A stretch of DNA of 64,000 nucleotides from contig JAFUAT010000013.1 in the NCBI GenBank assembly GCA_017460625.1, positions 1-64,000 of the forward strand. Direction: 5' to 3'. This document shows, one piece after another, positions 50,156 through 63,770 of this stretch (position 1 is its first letter; each line of letters starts with the position of its first letter). The DNA is from Candidatus Saccharimonadota bacterium (GTDB taxonomy: Bacteria; Patescibacteriota; Saccharimonadia; Saccharimonadales; Saccharimonadaceae). Below the pieces are notes generated by a model. The model saw only the letters and a list, made by a program, of their open reading frames with translations. It made no database searches and was not told the origin of the DNA. The position numbers and the translations under genes are program-made.

Positions 50156-51196
50156 TTATATAATTTTTACTATAGTGGAATATGCATTTTTGTTAGTTCG
50201 AGTTATCGCTGCATAAAGACTTTTTTTGGACATACTATTTCCAATGATAACGATGTCTTGGTTGATGGTGCTGCCTTTAGCTGTTTTGATTGTATTTATG
50301 GGGCCTTTCCATTGGTCAATGATTGCCGTGATAGTTTTGCCTTGTTTGGCATGGAAAAGCAGATATCGCAGTCCATCATTATATTCTAAAACTCTAGAAG
50401 ATGGTATCTTATGGTATTGTCCAGACAAATCTCTCCGTCCATATATTTCGATGCCGAGTTCGTCCCTTATCCATTTACATATTGGTTCTGGACATCTTTT
50501 ACTGGTGGTTTCTACCCTAGTGGCTGTTTTGTTCTTGAACCATTGTCCGGAATTGTTTATAATGTTCTGGTTATCGTCTCCTAATATAACTATTGGTATA
50601 TCCGATTTTTCCAATAGCTCAATGAATATTTCTTTGTATCCGTTAAGATCTTGTGCTTCATCTATAATAATATAGTCAAAACGTAGCTTGAGCAACTGCA
50701 ATAGTTGGTCGGGAAAAGCGTTGACTATGAAAGTAGATAGCTCACTTCTCAATGAGTCTGTTAGCCGTAGTGAATTTTCATTGAATATACATTTAACAAA
50801 ATTTAAATTAGATTTTTTAGATTTGTCGTTCAATATCGTGCAATGTTCATCATACAATGAAAACGCAGTTGGGGTTTGTCTATTGTATATTTGCCCGGTC
50901 TTCGGGAGTATGTGTAACTGTGTTATTCCTATTAAAAATTTTGGAAGATTTCCTGAGTTTATATATTCTATATTTTTTATTCCTTTTGTTATGGGTATTT
51001 GTCGAATAAATTTTGGTATGATGTAACTGGAGAATAATGAGTCGATAGTTTTCGACAAAAAGCCTTTATCGCTGATTTCATTCACTACACTGTTGGTGAA
51101 AGCTAGGTACAGACCGTTTTTATGTGTAGATAAAAACTTTAATGAGTAAGTTGTTTTGCCGGCTCCCGCTACACATTTAACTATTTCCGATGGCAT
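50156..51196 (-). CDS. Compact UvrD-like superfamily 1 helicase (GajB-like)
   Basis: 346 residues. Walker A VAGAGKTT (9-16), Walker B DYIIIDEAQD (174-183), motif III VILGDDNQNI (about 203-212), and a C-terminal motif VI-like YAAITRTNKNA. It lacks the large 1B/2B insertions of UvrD/Rep, and is smaller than typical GajB helicases of Gabija anti-phage systems. Its ATG lies 20 bases inside the end of the OLD-family gene, so the products are coupled. The OLD plus UvrD pairing is the Gabija/class 2 OLD arrangement; a defence role is inferred from that context. Confidence 0.82.
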   Translation of the reverse strand: MPSEIVKCVAGAGKTTYSLKFLSTHKNGLYLAFTNSVVNEISDKGFLSKTIDSLFSSYIIPKFIRQIPITKGIKNIEYINSGNLPKFLIGITQLHILPKTGQIYNRQTPTAFSLYDEHCTILNDKSKKSNLNFVKCIFNENSLRLTDSLRSELSTFIVNAFPDQLLQLLKLRFDYIIIDEAQDLNGYKEIFIELLEKSDIPIVILGDDNQNIINNSGQWFKNKTATRVETTSKRCPEPICKWIRDELGIEIYGRRDLSGQYHKIPSSRVLEYNDGLRYLLFHAKQGKTITAIIDQWKGPINTIKTAKGSTINQDIVIIGNSMSKKSLYAAITRTNKNAYSTIVKII

Positions 51197-52621
51197 TTTT
51201 TAGGTCCTTCATCACGTGCCAATTCGATAGGTCAACTTTTTTATCGATTAGCTCCCATGCAATTAACATCTTTGCATGGCTGTTTTTTGCTATTTTGTAT
51301 TCAGTGCCTGGGAGATCTTTTAAAAATTGGCTACCCGTTTCTAGCAGGCCATTCTTTGCTAAATCAGACTCTAGAGTATTTTCTGTATTTAAGAGTGTAA
51401 TTTCGTTTTCTGCGCATAGTTTCTGCAGCTTTTCGTATCTACTGGATGGTCCGTTTGATGCTTTTCTGTCATCATCGCTTATGACTATAATTCTTTTGTC
51501 TCCTAGGGTTATCGCTAATTTAATATAAGGCTCAAACATTACGTTAGCAACATTCACGATTGTCCAATTCTGATTATCCCGTTCATTTAGAAAATTTGTT
51601 AGTAGTAGCTCCTCTGTGTATCCTTCTACTAAAATAATATTATCGGCGAAAAATATTTCACATCTACCTGGATGCAGAAAAGTTTGTAACCTATTTTTGA
51701 TGTTATCATCTAAATTCCGTAATTGCTGGTTCGGCACATCTATTAGTTCTGTGAAATCACATTCGTTTATGACAACGGAGGAATGGCTGGTGACAATAAT
51801 TTGGGCATCTTTTGTTTTTCTGAGGTCTCTTAGAAGTACTCTTAAAAGAGCTGGATGAATGTGGTTTTCGATTTCATCTATTAGTATAATGCTATATTTT
51901 TCGTTGAAATTTGCGAGTAGTATATTGGCAATGCTTTTATAACCAGAGCCGATTTTTCTACCATGCTCTTTGTCATTTTCGACTACAAATATTTTTTCGT
52001 CTAGTAGTCTTGGGTCGCCGATATTGATATCTAAGTCTTGATTGAATTTTTTGCATAATTCTTTAAACTGATTGATCCTTGGTTCTAACTGTTCTTTTAC
52101 CTGATTTTTTGATTGCTCTTTTATCTGCTTGTAGCTGTCTTCGGATTCTATGAAATTTGACACACTAGTTGTGAGACAATCGTCGTAGACGTTTTCTGTC
52201 CTAGTCAACGGTATAGCATATATCTTTGGGATTTTTTCATCGCTAGTTACAATATCATAAGAGACTTGCTCTCCATGGAGTAGTCTTAACTGTTTTTTAT
52301 ACCTGCCAGTTTGAGTTTTTGAAATATTCACTGAGAAACCACATCTGAGTTCGCCGTTTTCTTCTTGATAGCATAGGCTAGGAATTGCTTGTGATTTCAA
52401 CGAGACCCTTATGACGATGGTTTTGCTATCATCGCTATCTTTGAAGTCACTTTTTTCTATTCTGAAGTAATCCTCTGATAATAATGAAAAAGCCAGCCGT
52501 ATGCCATCAAGCAGGTTGGTCTTTCCTGAACTTTTTTACCGACTATTATTGATAATTTGTCATTTAGACAATATCGACCGTTTAAATTTCTGAAATTTTC
52601 AAACTCTACATACTCTATCAT
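51177..52621 (-). pseudogene. OLD-family ATPase/TOPRIM nuclease (GajA-like), frameshifted in its P-loop
   Basis: The gene starts at ATG 52621 (MIEYVEFENFRNLNG, typical of OLD/RecF-like ATPases) and runs 30 codons to the six-T run at 52532-52537. The frame then shifts by one. Restoring one base would read GKKSSGKT, a perfect Walker A. After the shift come 450 codons with a GSGYKSI signature, Walker B IILIDEIENHIHP, H-loop IIVTSHSSV, then a TOPRIM domain (IILVEGYTEE; IIVISDDDR). The intact protein would be ~481 residues, shorter than usual GajA. The defect may be a sequencing error, phase variation or slippage, so calling it dead is not certain. Coupled to the UvrD-like gene. Confidence 0.85.
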
Positions 52622-52649
52622 CTTATTATAATTGCCATATTTATGAAAT

Positions 52650-52943
52650 TTATTCTTCCATCCCCTCTTGGGTGTATTCTGAGACGATTTTTATTACCTG
52701 CTGGATGGTGGGGGAACAATTTTTGAATTTAACTTTTTCAAAAAATACATCATTAAATTCTCTCATCGGTGATACGATTAGAGCATGAATGAAAGATTGA
52801 GTCGCGCCGGTCATCTTTTTGAAGTCTAAAATGACTTCTTTGCCATCGACTAATGCTGGCATAATTTGTTTAATCCTGATTTTCCGAGCGATGTCTTTGT
52901 TCTCGCCAAAGTTGCCAGCTTCTTTAGACAATACTATGTTCAT
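52650..52943 (-). CDS. STAS-like (DUF4325-type) small protein
   Basis: 97 residues with alternating strands and helices; VILDFKKMTGATQSFIHALI near 38-57 is the conserved STAS-like core, where a Ser/Thr pair follows the strand. DUF4325 proteins of this kind are commonly encoded right after a GHKL ATPase, as here (4-base ATGA overlap). By analogy with the anti-sigma factor kinases and their STAS antagonists, the pair could be a phosphorylation-based switch; this is inference. It is third from the end of the minus-strand operon and precedes the OLD-family gene by 28 bases. Confidence 0.78.
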   Translation of the reverse strand: MNIVLSKEAGNFGENKDIARKIRIKQIMPALVDGKEVILDFKKMTGATQSFIHALIVSPMREFNDVFFEKVKFKNCSPTIQQVIKIVSEYTQEGMEE

Positions 52944-53905
52944 ATAAATTTAATCTCCTTATATTTAGTTTTTTTGCGCTCTCGAATAGCCTTACTGTAA
53001 GCTATTTTGATTCGTTCAAGAATTTCGCTAAAACGTTCGGTGTCTGTAAGCGTCAAATCTAGGCCGATTAATGTGCCGCCGAAACTTGGCAAATCGTCGT
53101 AGGTTGAACATTTATCTGCAAATGGGTTTTCATTTAATCTTGGTCCGTGTTTGACTCGTTTGTCGAATTTGTGCATTTTGTAAGCGGCATTGCCACTATA
53201 AACGAAGAAATAATTGCGGGTTGTTTTGACGATAGACTTTACAATGTAGAGGCCTGCTCCGGCGTTGTCGCCAGTGCCACCGTGATATGCGGTGCCAGAT
53301 ACACCAGGCATTAGTGCTAGACGTATTGCGTCGAGATCGTCGATTGGGTTGTGGTATTTTTCGAGGCTAGCGCGCAAGCCGATTCCGGTGTCGCAAATTC
53401 CGATGCTTAATTTGTCTTTTGAGGCTGTGTATTGGACGGCGACGAAAGCGCCATTTTTGGCGTTAGAGTGTTCAATTACGTTTCTAATGAGCTCTCCTAG
53501 AACGTATTTTATGGTTTCGGATTTTTCTGGTGATAAATGAAGAATTGGGTGTAAGTCGGCAATGAATTTAGATTGTTCTGCATCGGTTTTTAATTGCGTA
53601 ATTGGAATAAGGCGTCCAGATTCTTCGTGTTTGTCGTATTTTACTGGGCAGCTGTTTGAGGCGTATTTATAAAGTCCCATTCGGTCTAAATAAATGATGG
53701 CTTGCTCGTCGTCAATATTAATTGTAGTATTTTCTTTGCCAACTTCTTCGGCGATTGCTGCTGTGAAAGCTAGACAAGCTGGATGAACGTATGCCCAATT
53801 ATTTTTTGAACTAATTTCTAGTTTGCCGCTATTGGATAATTTATTTAGACTTAAAAAATAATTGATACTTTTTAGCTGATCTAGGTTTGAAAATAAGATT
53901 TTCAT
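52940..53905 (-). CDS. GHKL-type ATPase (histidine-kinase-like ATP-binding protein)
   Basis: 321 residues. The N-terminal ~120 residues are unassigned. The ATP-binding fold has an N-box GELIRNVIEHS (Glu 138, Asn 142), a G1 box DTGIGL (172-177) and a glycine-rich lid GGTGDNAGAGLYI (209-221). No His-phosphotransfer or receiver domain is present, so it is not a classical sensor kinase. TATAAT ends exactly 6 bases before ATG 53905 and TTGACA lies 17 bases further, all under a palindromic site. First gene of the operon with the STAS-like, OLD-family and UvrD-like genes. Its target is unknown. Confidence 0.85.
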   Translation of the reverse strand: MKILFSNLDQLKSINYFLSLNKLSNSGKLEISSKNNWAYVHPACLAFTAAIAEEVGKENTTINIDDEQAIIYLDRMGLYKYASNSCPVKYDKHEESGRLIPITQLKTDAEQSKFIADLHPILHLSPEKSETIKYVLGELIRNVIEHSNAKNGAFVAVQYTASKDKLSIGICDTGIGLRASLEKYHNPIDDLDAIRLALMPGVSGTAYHGGTGDNAGAGLYIVKSIVKTTRNYFFVYSGNAAYKMHKFDKRVKHGPRLNENPFADKCSTYDDLPSFGGTLIGLDLTLTDTERFSEILERIKIAYSKAIRERKKTKYKEIKFI

Positions 53906-53911
53906 AAGTAT

Positions 53912-53940
53912 ATTATAACGGTTAAACGTATTTTTGTCAA
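53912..53940 (-). promoter_or_regulatory. Consensus promoter of the minus-strand defence-like operon
   Basis: Read on the minus strand: TTGACA (53940-53935), exactly 17 bases, TATAAT (53917-53912), then 6 bases to ATG 53905. Both hexamers are perfect consensus, so activity should be strong unless repressed. The first palindromic site covers everything from the -35 to the edge of the -10. Confidence 0.88.
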
Positions 53941-54013
53941 TATACGTTTAACCGTACAATATAAGGTAGTTATTTGCGGTTAGACGTGTTTTTGGAAATA
54001 TACGGTTAACCGT
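53918..54013. repeat. Two tandem 38-bp palindromic sites (operator-like)
   Basis: Site 1 (53918-53955) has arms ACGGTTAAACGTAT and ATACGTTTAACCGT, perfect inverted copies with a 10-base spacer. Site 2 (53976-54013) has the same 14-10-14 layout, GCGGTTAGACGTGT and ATACGGTTAACCGT, with mismatches; its right arm contains the self-palindrome ACGGTTAACCGT. The sites agree at 32 of 38 positions and are 58 bp apart centre to centre. Site 1 overlaps the promoter spacer and -35 of the GHKL-ATPase gene, so repression is the simplest reading. No obvious DNA-binding gene lies next to it. Confidence 0.85.
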
Positions 54014-55637: not shown

Positions 55638-55820
55638 ATGGTTGATTATTCAAGATTTCAGAAAGTATATGCCAATTTGCCAGAAAAAGTGAGAAATGGC
55701 ATTGTTGTGGTTGTGGACGATAAACCTTACAGTTGGAATGCAGTGTATTTAGAGCTTACTAGCGGAAGCAAACTTGGGGAAGAAATGTATGAGAAATTAA
55801 TAGAGATGGAGATAATATAA
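55638..55820 (+). CDS. Small hypothetical protein (60 aa), first gene of the CHAT-like cassette
   Basis: 60 residues starting at ATG 55638; TATAAT at 55621-55626 lies 11 bases upstream and a GGAAG is nearby. Hydrophobic core strand GIVVVVDDKPYSW followed by a helix LGEEMYEKLIEM suggests a tiny alpha/beta protein. No signal peptide. Its stop overlaps the next start (ATGA), and the third gene encodes a CHAT-like putative protease, so the product may be a partner, substrate or inhibitor of it. No family recognised. Confidence 0.6.
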   Translation: MVDYSRFQKVYANLPEKVRNGIVVVVDDKPYSWNAVYLELTSGSKLGEEMYEKLIEMEII

Positions 55821-56035
55821 TGAATGAAGATTTTCAAAAATTAGTTTGCGCAAGATTGCGAGCTTTACCAAAGGGTTATTCTATTTCTATTGGTGGTTCG
55901 CAAAATGTAACAAAAGAAGAAGCTATAGAGCATGTAAATAGTAATGATGAGATTGGGCAATTATTAGTCGCTGTTGATCGCCACTATTTCGATATGATAA
56001 AAGCCGGAAAGATTTATGAAGGTATTACTGATTAA
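55820..56035 (+). CDS. Small hypothetical protein (71 aa), second gene of the CHAT-like cassette
   Basis: 71 residues, starting within the stop of the previous gene. It is mostly helical with a Gly-rich turn (SISIGGSQNVTKEEAIEHV) and a charged C terminus (YFDMIKAGKIYEG). Its length and strand-turn-helix opening resemble the preceding protein, and the two could be distant relatives. It overlaps the CHAT-like gene by 20 bases. Not recognised. Confidence 0.6.
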   Translation: MNEDFQKLVCARLRALPKGYSISIGGSQNVTKEEAIEHVNSNDEIGQLLVAVDRHYFDMIKAGKIYEGITD

Positions 56036-56636
56036 TTCAGAAGTTGATTTGTTAACACGATATTTATTGGCATGGACTGAACGAATAGTTGAGGAATGTA
56101 AAATTAAAACAAATGAATATTGTCGCTTAAATGATAAGAGGGCTACGAGAGAGAATTTTGAAAGTATACTTTCTAAACGCCGGGTTGATTTAGTGTTATT
56201 GTGTGGGCACGGTAGTGATAAAGCAGTTTTTGGAGAAAGTGGGCCGATTCTAGATGTTGAGAACGACAATTTGCTTGATGGCAAGATGGCTCATGCTTTG
56301 TCATGTAGGAGTGCAAAGATTTTAGGTCGAGACGCTGTGAAAAAAGGGGCTAAAGCGTATGTTGGCTATAAAGAAGATTTTGTTGTGTTTTTGAACGATA
56401 ATATTTCTACTTTTGAACCCCTAAAGGATAAAACGGCAACGTTATTTTTAAATCCGGCTTTTGTGGTGCCTAAAGTTTTATTGCGTGGAGGAAGCGCTGA
56501 CGAGGCGGTTAATGCTGCCAAGAAAGAGTATAATAGAAGTATAAAAAAAGCTATGGGCAGCGATATACAATCTGATGATGACCAGTTTTTGAACTGGCTA
56601 TATTGGGATAGAGATAATTTAGTAGCATTAACATAG
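56016..56636 (+). CDS. CHAT/caspase-like putative cysteine protease
   Basis: 206 residues. A strand ends in LVLLCGHGSDKAVFG (His 65) and a second in MAHALSCRSAKILG (Cys 97), followed by VKKGAKAYVGYKE. The order strand-HG, strand-SC is the His-Cys dyad layout of caspase-fold peptidases of the CHAT/C25 type. The N-terminal ~50 residues form the alternating helices expected before the first catalytic strand. No signal peptide, so cytosolic. CHAT proteases act as effectors in bacterial immunity and cell-death systems. Catalysis is not proven, and a non-catalytic homolog is possible. Co-directional with capsule genes 8 bases downstream. Confidence 0.7.
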   Translation: MKVLLINSEVDLLTRYLLAWTERIVEECKIKTNEYCRLNDKRATRENFESILSKRRVDLVLLCGHGSDKAVFGESGPILDVENDNLLDGKMAHALSCRSAKILGRDAVKKGAKAYVGYKEDFVVFLNDNISTFEPLKDKTATLFLNPAFVVPKVLLRGGSADEAVNAAKKEYNRSIKKAMGSDIQSDDDQFLNWLYWDRDNLVALT

Positions 56637-62672: not shown

Positions 62673-63770
62673 GTGTCGGGGAGCAAAATCAGATATAGGG
62701 TTTTGGATTTGTTCGCTGGTGCGGGCGGATTGTCATTAGGGCTTGATCAGGTTCCGGGAATTGAGACTGTAGAAGCGACCGATTTTATGAAGGAAGCAAC
62801 AGAAACCTTTGCTTTGAATTTTCCAAATGCAGAAGTTATTTATGGGGATATTTGCGACCCCCTAATTAAAAAAGAGATTGTTGAAAATGCAAAACGTTTA
62901 AAGGTTAATATGATTGTTGGTGGGCCGCCGTGTCAGGGTTTTAGCAATAAAGGTAAAAAGTTGGGTTTGAAAGATCCACGGAATTTTTTATTTAGACAGT
63001 ATCTTGATGTTGTAAAGCAAGTAAAGCCCGATGTTTTTGTGATAGAAAATGTCAAGGCAATGTCAACTAGCACAAATGGATGGTTTTTAAATGAGATACT
63101 TAGCGAAATTAAAAAGCTTGGATATGATGCTAAATGGGGAATTTTGACGGCGAGTGATTTTGGCGTGCCGCAACAACGCCAGCGTACTATAATAATTGCG
63201 AGTAGAATTGGAGATATTCTGCTTCCAAAACCAAGCGTTTCTGAGAAGGATAAAACGACGGTTAGAGATGCGATTTCAGATTTAGCATATTTGGAGTCTG
63301 GGGAGGGTGCAGATGAGTCCGACTATATTACGGAAGCTCAGTCTGATTATCAAAAGATGCTTAGGGGTGATTGTAAAAAATTGTATAACCATAAGGCGAC
63401 AAACCATTCCAAGGTGGCGCTTGAGAAGCTTTCTATGATTCCAGCAGAATCTGGTAAGGAAAATTTGCCGGACGAACTGATTGGGAAGCAAAAATTTAAG
63501 ACTACATGGGGTAGGTTAAAATGGGATACGCAGAGTCCAACTATTGATACACGTTTCGATACGCCGTCTAATGGAACAAATAGTCATCCGGAGCTAGATA
63601 GAGCAATTACTCCCCGAGAAGCTGCTAGAATTCAGAGTTTTCCGGATTCATTTAGGTTTCTTGGTTCAAAAACTTTTGTTTGTAAACAAATAGGCAATGC
63701 AGTTCCGCCGCTTCTTGGAAAAGCGATAGGTGAATCAATTATAAAACAGACTAGGAATAGGAATGTTTAA
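62673..63770 (+). CDS. DNA (cytosine-5-)-methyltransferase
   Basis: 365 residues from GTG 62673, preceded by GGAGG. All key motifs are present: I (VLDLFAGAGGLSLGLD), IV with the catalytic Cys (VGGPPCQGFSNKGK), VI (VIENVKAM), VIII (QQRQRTIIIASR) and X near the end (IGNAVPPLLGKAIGESI). The variable target-recognition region is between ~190 and ~300. Such enzymes protect DNA in restriction-modification. TATAAT (62633-62638) in the previous gene end may drive it. It overlaps a second methyltransferase gene by 8 bases. Confidence 0.93.
   Translation: MSGSKIRYRVLDLFAGAGGLSLGLDQVPGIETVEATDFMKEATETFALNFPNAEVIYGDICDPLIKKEIVENAKRLKVNMIVGGPPCQGFSNKGKKLGLKDPRNFLFRQYLDVVKQVKPDVFVIENVKAMSTSTNGWFLNEILSEIKKLGYDAKWGILTASDFGVPQQRQRTIIIASRIGDILLPKPSVSEKDKTTVRDAISDLAYLESGEGADESDYITEAQSDYQKMLRGDCKKLYNHKATNHSKVALEKLSMIPAESGKENLPDELIGKQKFKTTWGRLKWDTQSPTIDTRFDTPSNGTNSHPELDRAITPREAARIQSFPDSFRFLGSKTFVCKQIGNAVPPLLGKAIGESIIKQTRNRNV

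What the first reader, a model, noticed from the sequence alone, without database searches (positions are those of the whole stretch)
50156..54013. Four-gene minus-strand operon: GHKL ATPase, STAS-like protein, OLD-type nuclease and mini-UvrD helicase under one operator-covered promoter
Seen: four genes spaced by overlaps or at most 28 bases, in the opposite direction to the capsule genes on both sides, with a consensus promoter. Known: OLD ATPase/TOPRIM plus UvrD-like helicase is the Gabija (class 2 OLD) anti-phage arrangement; GHKL plus DUF4325 STAS-like pairs also occur as two-gene units. Inference: here they form a single four-gene system, in which the GHKL/STAS pair could act as a sensor or switch controlling the nuclease/helicase. 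Both enzymes appear smaller than the usual Gabija proteins. I know of no description of this four-gene set.
Basis: partly seen in the sequence, partly recalled or inferred. Interest (0 to 1): 0.85.

Follow-up and report, generated by a model that had tools for sequence, protein, structure and literature searches.

The report
Kinase–STAS switch before Gabija-like pair
In a tiny Saccharibacteria genome, a self-regulated kinase/STAS gene pair of a widespread, mobile type (related to a recently described DNA-damage switch for immune genes) sits in front of a compact Gabija-like nuclease/helicase pair whose nuclease gene is out of frame at its ATP-binding loop; the combination is so far unique, while the two halves are each of known kinds.

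Summary
The four co-directional genes and the perfect, palindrome-covered promoter are real. The four are not a recurrent system. GHKL/STAS is a stand-alone two-gene unit: of 80 relatives in CPR bacteria, Elusimicrobia, DPANN archaea and others, at least 68 have STAS next door and none has OLD or UvrD within the flanks held. The only close OLD/UvrD relative (another Saccharibacterium, intact) lies inside a type I restriction operon without GHKL/STAS. It differs from CapKS in lacking both HTH domains. Unexpectedly, nearly every pair carries a palindromic operator near its promoter, and operator type follows the kinase tree (3 changes; shuffled 24–31), not the host phylum (29). No third gene is shared, so one of these two proteins probably binds DNA without a recognised DNA-binding domain. 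New variant of a known kind.

The parts
52940..53905 (-). STAS-like N-domain + GHKL (anti-sigma-type) kinase, 321 aa; N-box N142, D172/G174/G176, G-box NAGAGL, conserved W37
   Evidence: HATPase_c 8.4e-7; model pLDDT 85 matches SpoIIAB Z 12.4; 66-relative alignment
52650..52943 (-). STAS-only protein (DUF4325), 97 aa, invariant T48-Q49-S50-F51 at the expected phospho-acceptor position; no wHTH
   Evidence: DUF4325 2e-11; model pLDDT 96.6, closest solved folds SpoIIAA/RsbV/RsbS and other STAS domains; best sequence match in PDB VapS, E 0.003
52457..52621 (-). N-terminal piece of the OLD gene (frame 0), stops early; ends beyond the frame break
   Evidence: translation in three frames
51177..52535 (-). 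Body of the OLD gene (-1 frame): end of Walker A (SSGKT), dimerisation region, Walker B (IILIDEIENHIHP), TOPRIM (LVEGYTEE, SDDDR); 452 aa open
   Evidence: GajA profile 7e-22
50156..51196 (-). Compact UvrD-like SF1 helicase, 346 aa (GAGKTT, DEAQD, GDDNQ, ..AITRT motifs)
   Evidence: UvrD-helicase 2.7e-8, Viral_helicase1 1.2e-8; GajB profile 9e-14; 43% identical full-length relative
53912..53940 (-). sigma-70 promoter TTGACA-17-TATAAT, 12 of 12 matches
53918..53955 (.). operator: inverted repeat ACGGTTAAACGTAT ... ATACGTTTAACCGT around the -35 box
   Evidence: perfect half-sites found only here in the 0.71-Mb genome
53976..54013 (.). second, imperfect operator copy upstream (ACGGTTAACCGTAT ... 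ACACGTCTAACCGC)

Best explanation
GHKL/STAS is a CapKS-like regulatory unit. In resting cells the pair represses its own promoter through the palindromic operator, keeping the whole co-transcribed operon low. A stress signal, by homology single-stranded DNA from phage attack or DNA repair, activates the kinase; it phosphorylates the STAS protein at the conserved T48/S50 site, repression is lifted, and the kinase, STAS protein and the OLD/UvrD pair behind them are made. OLD/UvrD is a compact Gabija-type (class 2 OLD) nuclease/helicase that would act on invading DNA. The two modules were put together in this lineage; elsewhere each lives apart. In the assembled genome the OLD frame is broken in its ATP-binding loop, so this copy may be inactive, phase-varying or mis-sequenced. 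Shown by computation: gene anatomy, promoter/operator, families and folds, the operator travelling with the pair, lack of co-occurrence, the frame break. Inferred: repression, ssDNA sensing, phosphorylation, defence function.
For: Kinase model closest to SpoIIAB, Z 12.4, STAS model to SpoIIAA/RsbV/RsbS-type STAS domains; STAS profile's best PDB hit is VapS of VapKSC. CapK/CapS work as described in PMC13373217. Palindromes of score 8 or more in 74 of 78 GHKL upstream regions against 27 of 150 control genes, 12 or more in 43/78 against 6/150. Operator class changes 3 times on the kinase tree (100 shuffles: 24-31), host phylum 29 times. No third gene family in more than 7 of 80 loci. Operator half-sites perfect only at this promoter in the genome. 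The 28-nt gap and 20-nt overlap leave no room for a separate intergenic OLD promoter. Several relatives have the pair co-oriented with RM genes: L105 hsdM-hsdS-pair-hsdR, L128, L134 and L096.
Against: Both HTH domains that CapK and CapS carry are missing; no known DNA-binding domain is seen in either protein. Most relatives of the pair have no immune genes directly downstream, so control of a downstream operon is not its general role. The OLD frame is broken. No expression or phage data exist.
Confidence: 0.6

Rival explanations
1. Accidental neighbours: the GHKL/STAS unit and the OLD/UvrD pair landed side by side in a variable capsule locus and have no functional link beyond read-through.
For: 0 of 80 GHKL relatives have OLD/UvrD nearby; OLD/UvrD in G393 has other neighbours; the OLD gene is out of frame.
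Against: Same strand, 28-nt spacing, no intergenic room for another promoter, one strong regulated promoter; related kinase/STAS pairs are repeatedly placed before immune genes (PMC13373217) and here before hsdR in some relatives.
Confidence: 0.25
2. A dedicated four-component defence system in which kinase and STAS protein contact the nuclease/helicase directly (as VapK/VapS do with VapC).
For: Operon structure; VapS binds its effector protein directly in VapKSC (PMC13373217), and the window STAS protein, like VapS, lacks the wHTH.
Against: No second example; kinase and STAS proteins are conserved (38-75% identity) where OLD/UvrD are absent.
Confidence: 0.08
3. GHKL/STAS itself is a stand-alone stress or toxin-antitoxin-like mobile unit, and OLD/UvrD are mere passengers.
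For: Tight two-gene overlap, own operator, patchy spread over many phyla with varied neighbours.
Against: No toxin domain in either protein; folds are those of regulators.
Confidence: 0.2

Closest known systems
CapK + CapS (PMC13373217, EMBO J 2026)
   Same: STAS-GHKL anti-sigma-like kinase gene followed at once by a STAS protein gene; conserved Ser/Thr at the STAS phospho-site; palindromic operator in the promoter; immune-type genes downstream in the same operon
   Different: No N-terminal HTH on the kinase, no C-terminal wHTH on the STAS protein; different operators (CapS uses TTAA half-sites); pair usually stands alone; found in CPR, DPANN and Elusimicrobia
VapKSC (PMC13373217)
   Same: STAS-GHKL kinase without HTH plus STAS protein without wHTH; VapS is the best PDB sequence match of the STAS profile (E 0.003)
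   Different: No VapC/PIN toxin in the window operon; conserved operator instead
Gabija (GajA/GajB, class 2 OLD)
   Same: ABC-ATPase/TOPRIM OLD protein next to a UvrD-like helicase, overlapping genes; profile hits to GajA and GajB
   Different: Both proteins short (about 480 and 346 aa); P-loop frame broken in this copy; preceded by the kinase/STAS pair; nearest relative sits inside a type I RM operon
SpoIIAB/SpoIIAA, RsbW/RsbV
   Same: Kinase fold (Z 12.4) and STAS fold
   Different: No sigma factor in the operon; DNA operator present

Membership tests
CapK/CapS regulators | STAS-GHKL kinase gene immediately followed by STAS gene | tested here: met
   Window and at least 68 of 80 relatives, most with 4-nt overlap; the STAS assignment of the kinase's N-domain rests on reading and predicted secondary structure
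CapK/CapS regulators | N-terminal HTH on the kinase | tested here: not met
   321-aa protein begins directly with the STAS-like domain; no HTH family hit
CapK/CapS regulators | C-terminal wHTH on the STAS protein | tested here: not met
   97 aa, pure STAS fold; relatives 94-109 aa, one 127
CapK/CapS regulators | conserved Ser/Thr phospho-acceptor on STAS helix 2 | tested here: met
   T48 and S50 invariant in 67 sequences, at the start of helix 49-70; the exact equivalent residue is unresolved, since the VapS alignment puts a VapS Ser against Q49
CapK/CapS regulators | palindromic operator in the promoter | tested here: met
CapK/CapS regulators | aromatic residue contacting ssDNA; activation by ssDNA | tested here: inconclusive
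   W37 conserved in 90% or more, but its equivalence to CapK W68 was not shown; activation not testable
VapKSC | VapC/PIN toxin gene in the operon | tested here: not met
   No PIN domain among the window operon genes
Gabija (class 2 OLD) | OLD protein with ABC ATPase and TOPRIM | tested here: inconclusive
   TOPRIM 1.7e-9 and Walker B present; Walker A out of frame in this copy, intact in the relative L076
Gabija (class 2 OLD) | adjacent UvrD/PcrA/Rep-like helicase | tested here: met
   class definition in PMC10568477
Gabija (class 2 OLD) | GajA4:GajB4 complex and anti-phage activity | not testable with these tools
   none
Gabija (class 2 OLD) | class 2 helical insert in TOPRIM | not tested
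   OLD structure not predicted

The most novel reading that the evidence does not exclude
A widespread, horizontally moving kinase/STAS pair of ultra-small bacteria and archaea represses its own promoter with a DNA-binding mode that needs no HTH domain: a bare STAS protein (or the kinase itself) recognises a lineage-specific palindrome, and phosphorylation releases it; different lineages have hitched defence genes (RM, here a Gabija-like pair) behind it.
Probability: 0.35. Interest if true: 0.8.

Novelty: new variant of a known kind. Interest (0 to 1): 0.5.

Why it matters
It extends the CapK/CapS idea (kinase-controlled immune operons) to CPR bacteria and DPANN archaea. It gives a clear puzzle: a conserved operator that tracks a gene pair with no visible DNA-binding domain. 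It also corrects the four-gene reading, so the locus should not be catalogued as a new defence system on present evidence.

Tried and rejected
Searches for three of the proteins (kinase, OLD, helicase) singly in IMG/VR gave no relative; profile searches gave only partial OLD and helicase matches and no kinase relative, so a phage-borne four-gene cassette found no support. Plasmid and phage records hold only distant partial matches, or none for the helicase. The first genome-contig scan with the single kinase found nothing; the profile scan succeeded. Programmed frameshifting at the A-run: the run is not of canonical tandem-slippage form in the reading frame and is absent from the intact relative, so it is disfavoured, not excluded. 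Sequencing error: 140 A/T runs of 6 or more lie in 50 long open ORFs of the window, so error is possible but not favoured. Empty-site test in the genus failed: the flanking epimerase gene has no close homologue in 59 other genomes. Two plasmid kinase relatives were inspected for neighbours; neither lay in a recognisable CapKS or OLD/UvrD operon.

Full report
What is there. The window comes from a 0.71-Mb genome in 14 contigs; small size and nearest relatives place it in Saccharibacteria. Between plus-strand capsule genes lie four minus-strand genes: kinase (53905-52940), STAS protein (52943-52650), OLD (52621-51177) and UvrD-like helicase (51196-50156), with overlaps of 4 and 20 nt and one 28-nt gap. 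Pfam, PADLOC and NCBIfam assign GHKL ATPase, DUF4325, OLD/GajA and UvrD/GajB. A perfect sigma-70 promoter carries a 14-bp inverted repeat around its -35 box and a weaker copy upstream.

The OLD gene is broken in this assembly. The N-terminal frame leads up to the P-loop, and everything after it lies in the -1 frame. The single close relative, in genome G393, is intact there. The rest of the protein shows no further break and keeps Walker B and TOPRIM motifs, so the change is recent, reversible or technical (inference). The A-run at the break is missing in the relative, which speaks against a conserved programmed shift; 140 similar runs in 50 long open ORFs of the window make a sequencing error less likely but do not exclude it.

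Are the four one system? The kinase profile found 199 relatives in genome contigs, of which the best 80 were kept. Sixty-eight have the STAS gene directly behind; a few others have a minus-strand ORF called over the place, so 68 is a minimum. None has an OLD or UvrD homologue in the flanking DNA held; 51 of the 67 clean pairs have 2.5 kb or more downstream. The two closest, 74 and 72% identical, also lack them. In the other direction, searches of 199 family genomes and 345 order genomes (overlapping samples) gave one close relative of the OLD/UvrD pair besides the window, and there the pair stands inside hsdM-OLD-UvrD-hsdS-hsdR without kinase or STAS gene. The four-gene set is therefore a unique combination so far.

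What the kinase/STAS pair is. AlphaFold models built on 67 sequences match SpoIIAB (Z 12.4) and SpoIIAA/RsbV/RsbS-type STAS domains. The STAS profile's best hit among solved structures is VapS (E 0.003). The window pair shares kinase, STAS protein, invariant T48/S50 and operator, but has neither HTH domain; it is CapKS-like, not a CapKS member as defined.

The operator is the surprise. Palindromes of score 8 or more occur in 74 of 78 kinase upstream regions against 27 of 150 control genes. They fall into four sequence classes (A ACCGGGAATCCCGGT, B CCCGTAGAGTGC, C the window's ACGGTTAAACGTAT, D ATAATTA), mostly flanking TTGACA; in archaeal members they stand near a TATA-like sequence. On the kinase tree the class changes 3 times (shuffles 24-31), host phylum 29 times. 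The classes were assigned by pattern rules written after seeing the sequences, so the exact count is soft; the tree itself used protein sequence only. No third gene family occurs in more than 7 of the 80 loci. So the binder of the operator most likely is one of these two proteins, although neither shows a known DNA-binding domain (inference). In the window's genome perfect half-sites occur only at this promoter, fitting a local autoregulator.

How it most likely works. The pair holds its own promoter shut; by homology, ssDNA or DNA damage activates the kinase, the STAS protein is phosphorylated and released, and the operon including OLD/UvrD is expressed. A minority of relatives also have the pair co-oriented with restriction genes (L105, L128, L134, L096), as reported for CapKS; most do not, so the link to defence is modular rather than fixed. 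Whether OLD works here depends on the frame break.

Novelty. The halves are known kinds; the HTH-less, operator-bearing kinase/STAS lineage in CPR and DPANN, and its placing before a Gabija-like pair, are new variants as far as the held library shows (only open-licence papers are held).

Noticed in passing
62673-63770 and L239 (G000:C11:62500-67989): The m5C DNA methyltransferase at the window's edge is followed in the same contig by what look like an adenine methyltransferase, a 424-aa protein that may be its restriction enzyme, and a recombinase-like protein on the other strand (by eye): probably an RM locus about 9 kb from the operon.
   Followed up: partly
55638-56636: Three small plus-strand genes; the 206-aa third has only a weak CHAT (caspase-like) match (E 0.15) with CGHG and SC motifs.
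   Followed up: no
L048:10693-11740: A second kinase/STAS-like pair in genome G175, whose kinase starts with a MerR-like HTH, closer in layout to CapK.
   Followed up: no
L126, L139, L143, L157, L165, L166: Archaeal (DPANN) kinase/STAS pairs carry the same ACCGGGA(A/T)TCCCGGT-type operator beside a TATA-like sequence, suggesting transfer of pair plus operator between domains.
   Followed up: partly
L076:9780-10160: 126-aa protein of no Pfam family, wHTH-like by eye, between hsdM and OLD in the G393 restriction operon.
   Followed up: no
52650-53905 (PHROG 5816, matched by both kinase and STAS protein): A phage protein family (441 positions) appears to fuse kinase and STAS parts in one chain.
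   Followed up: no
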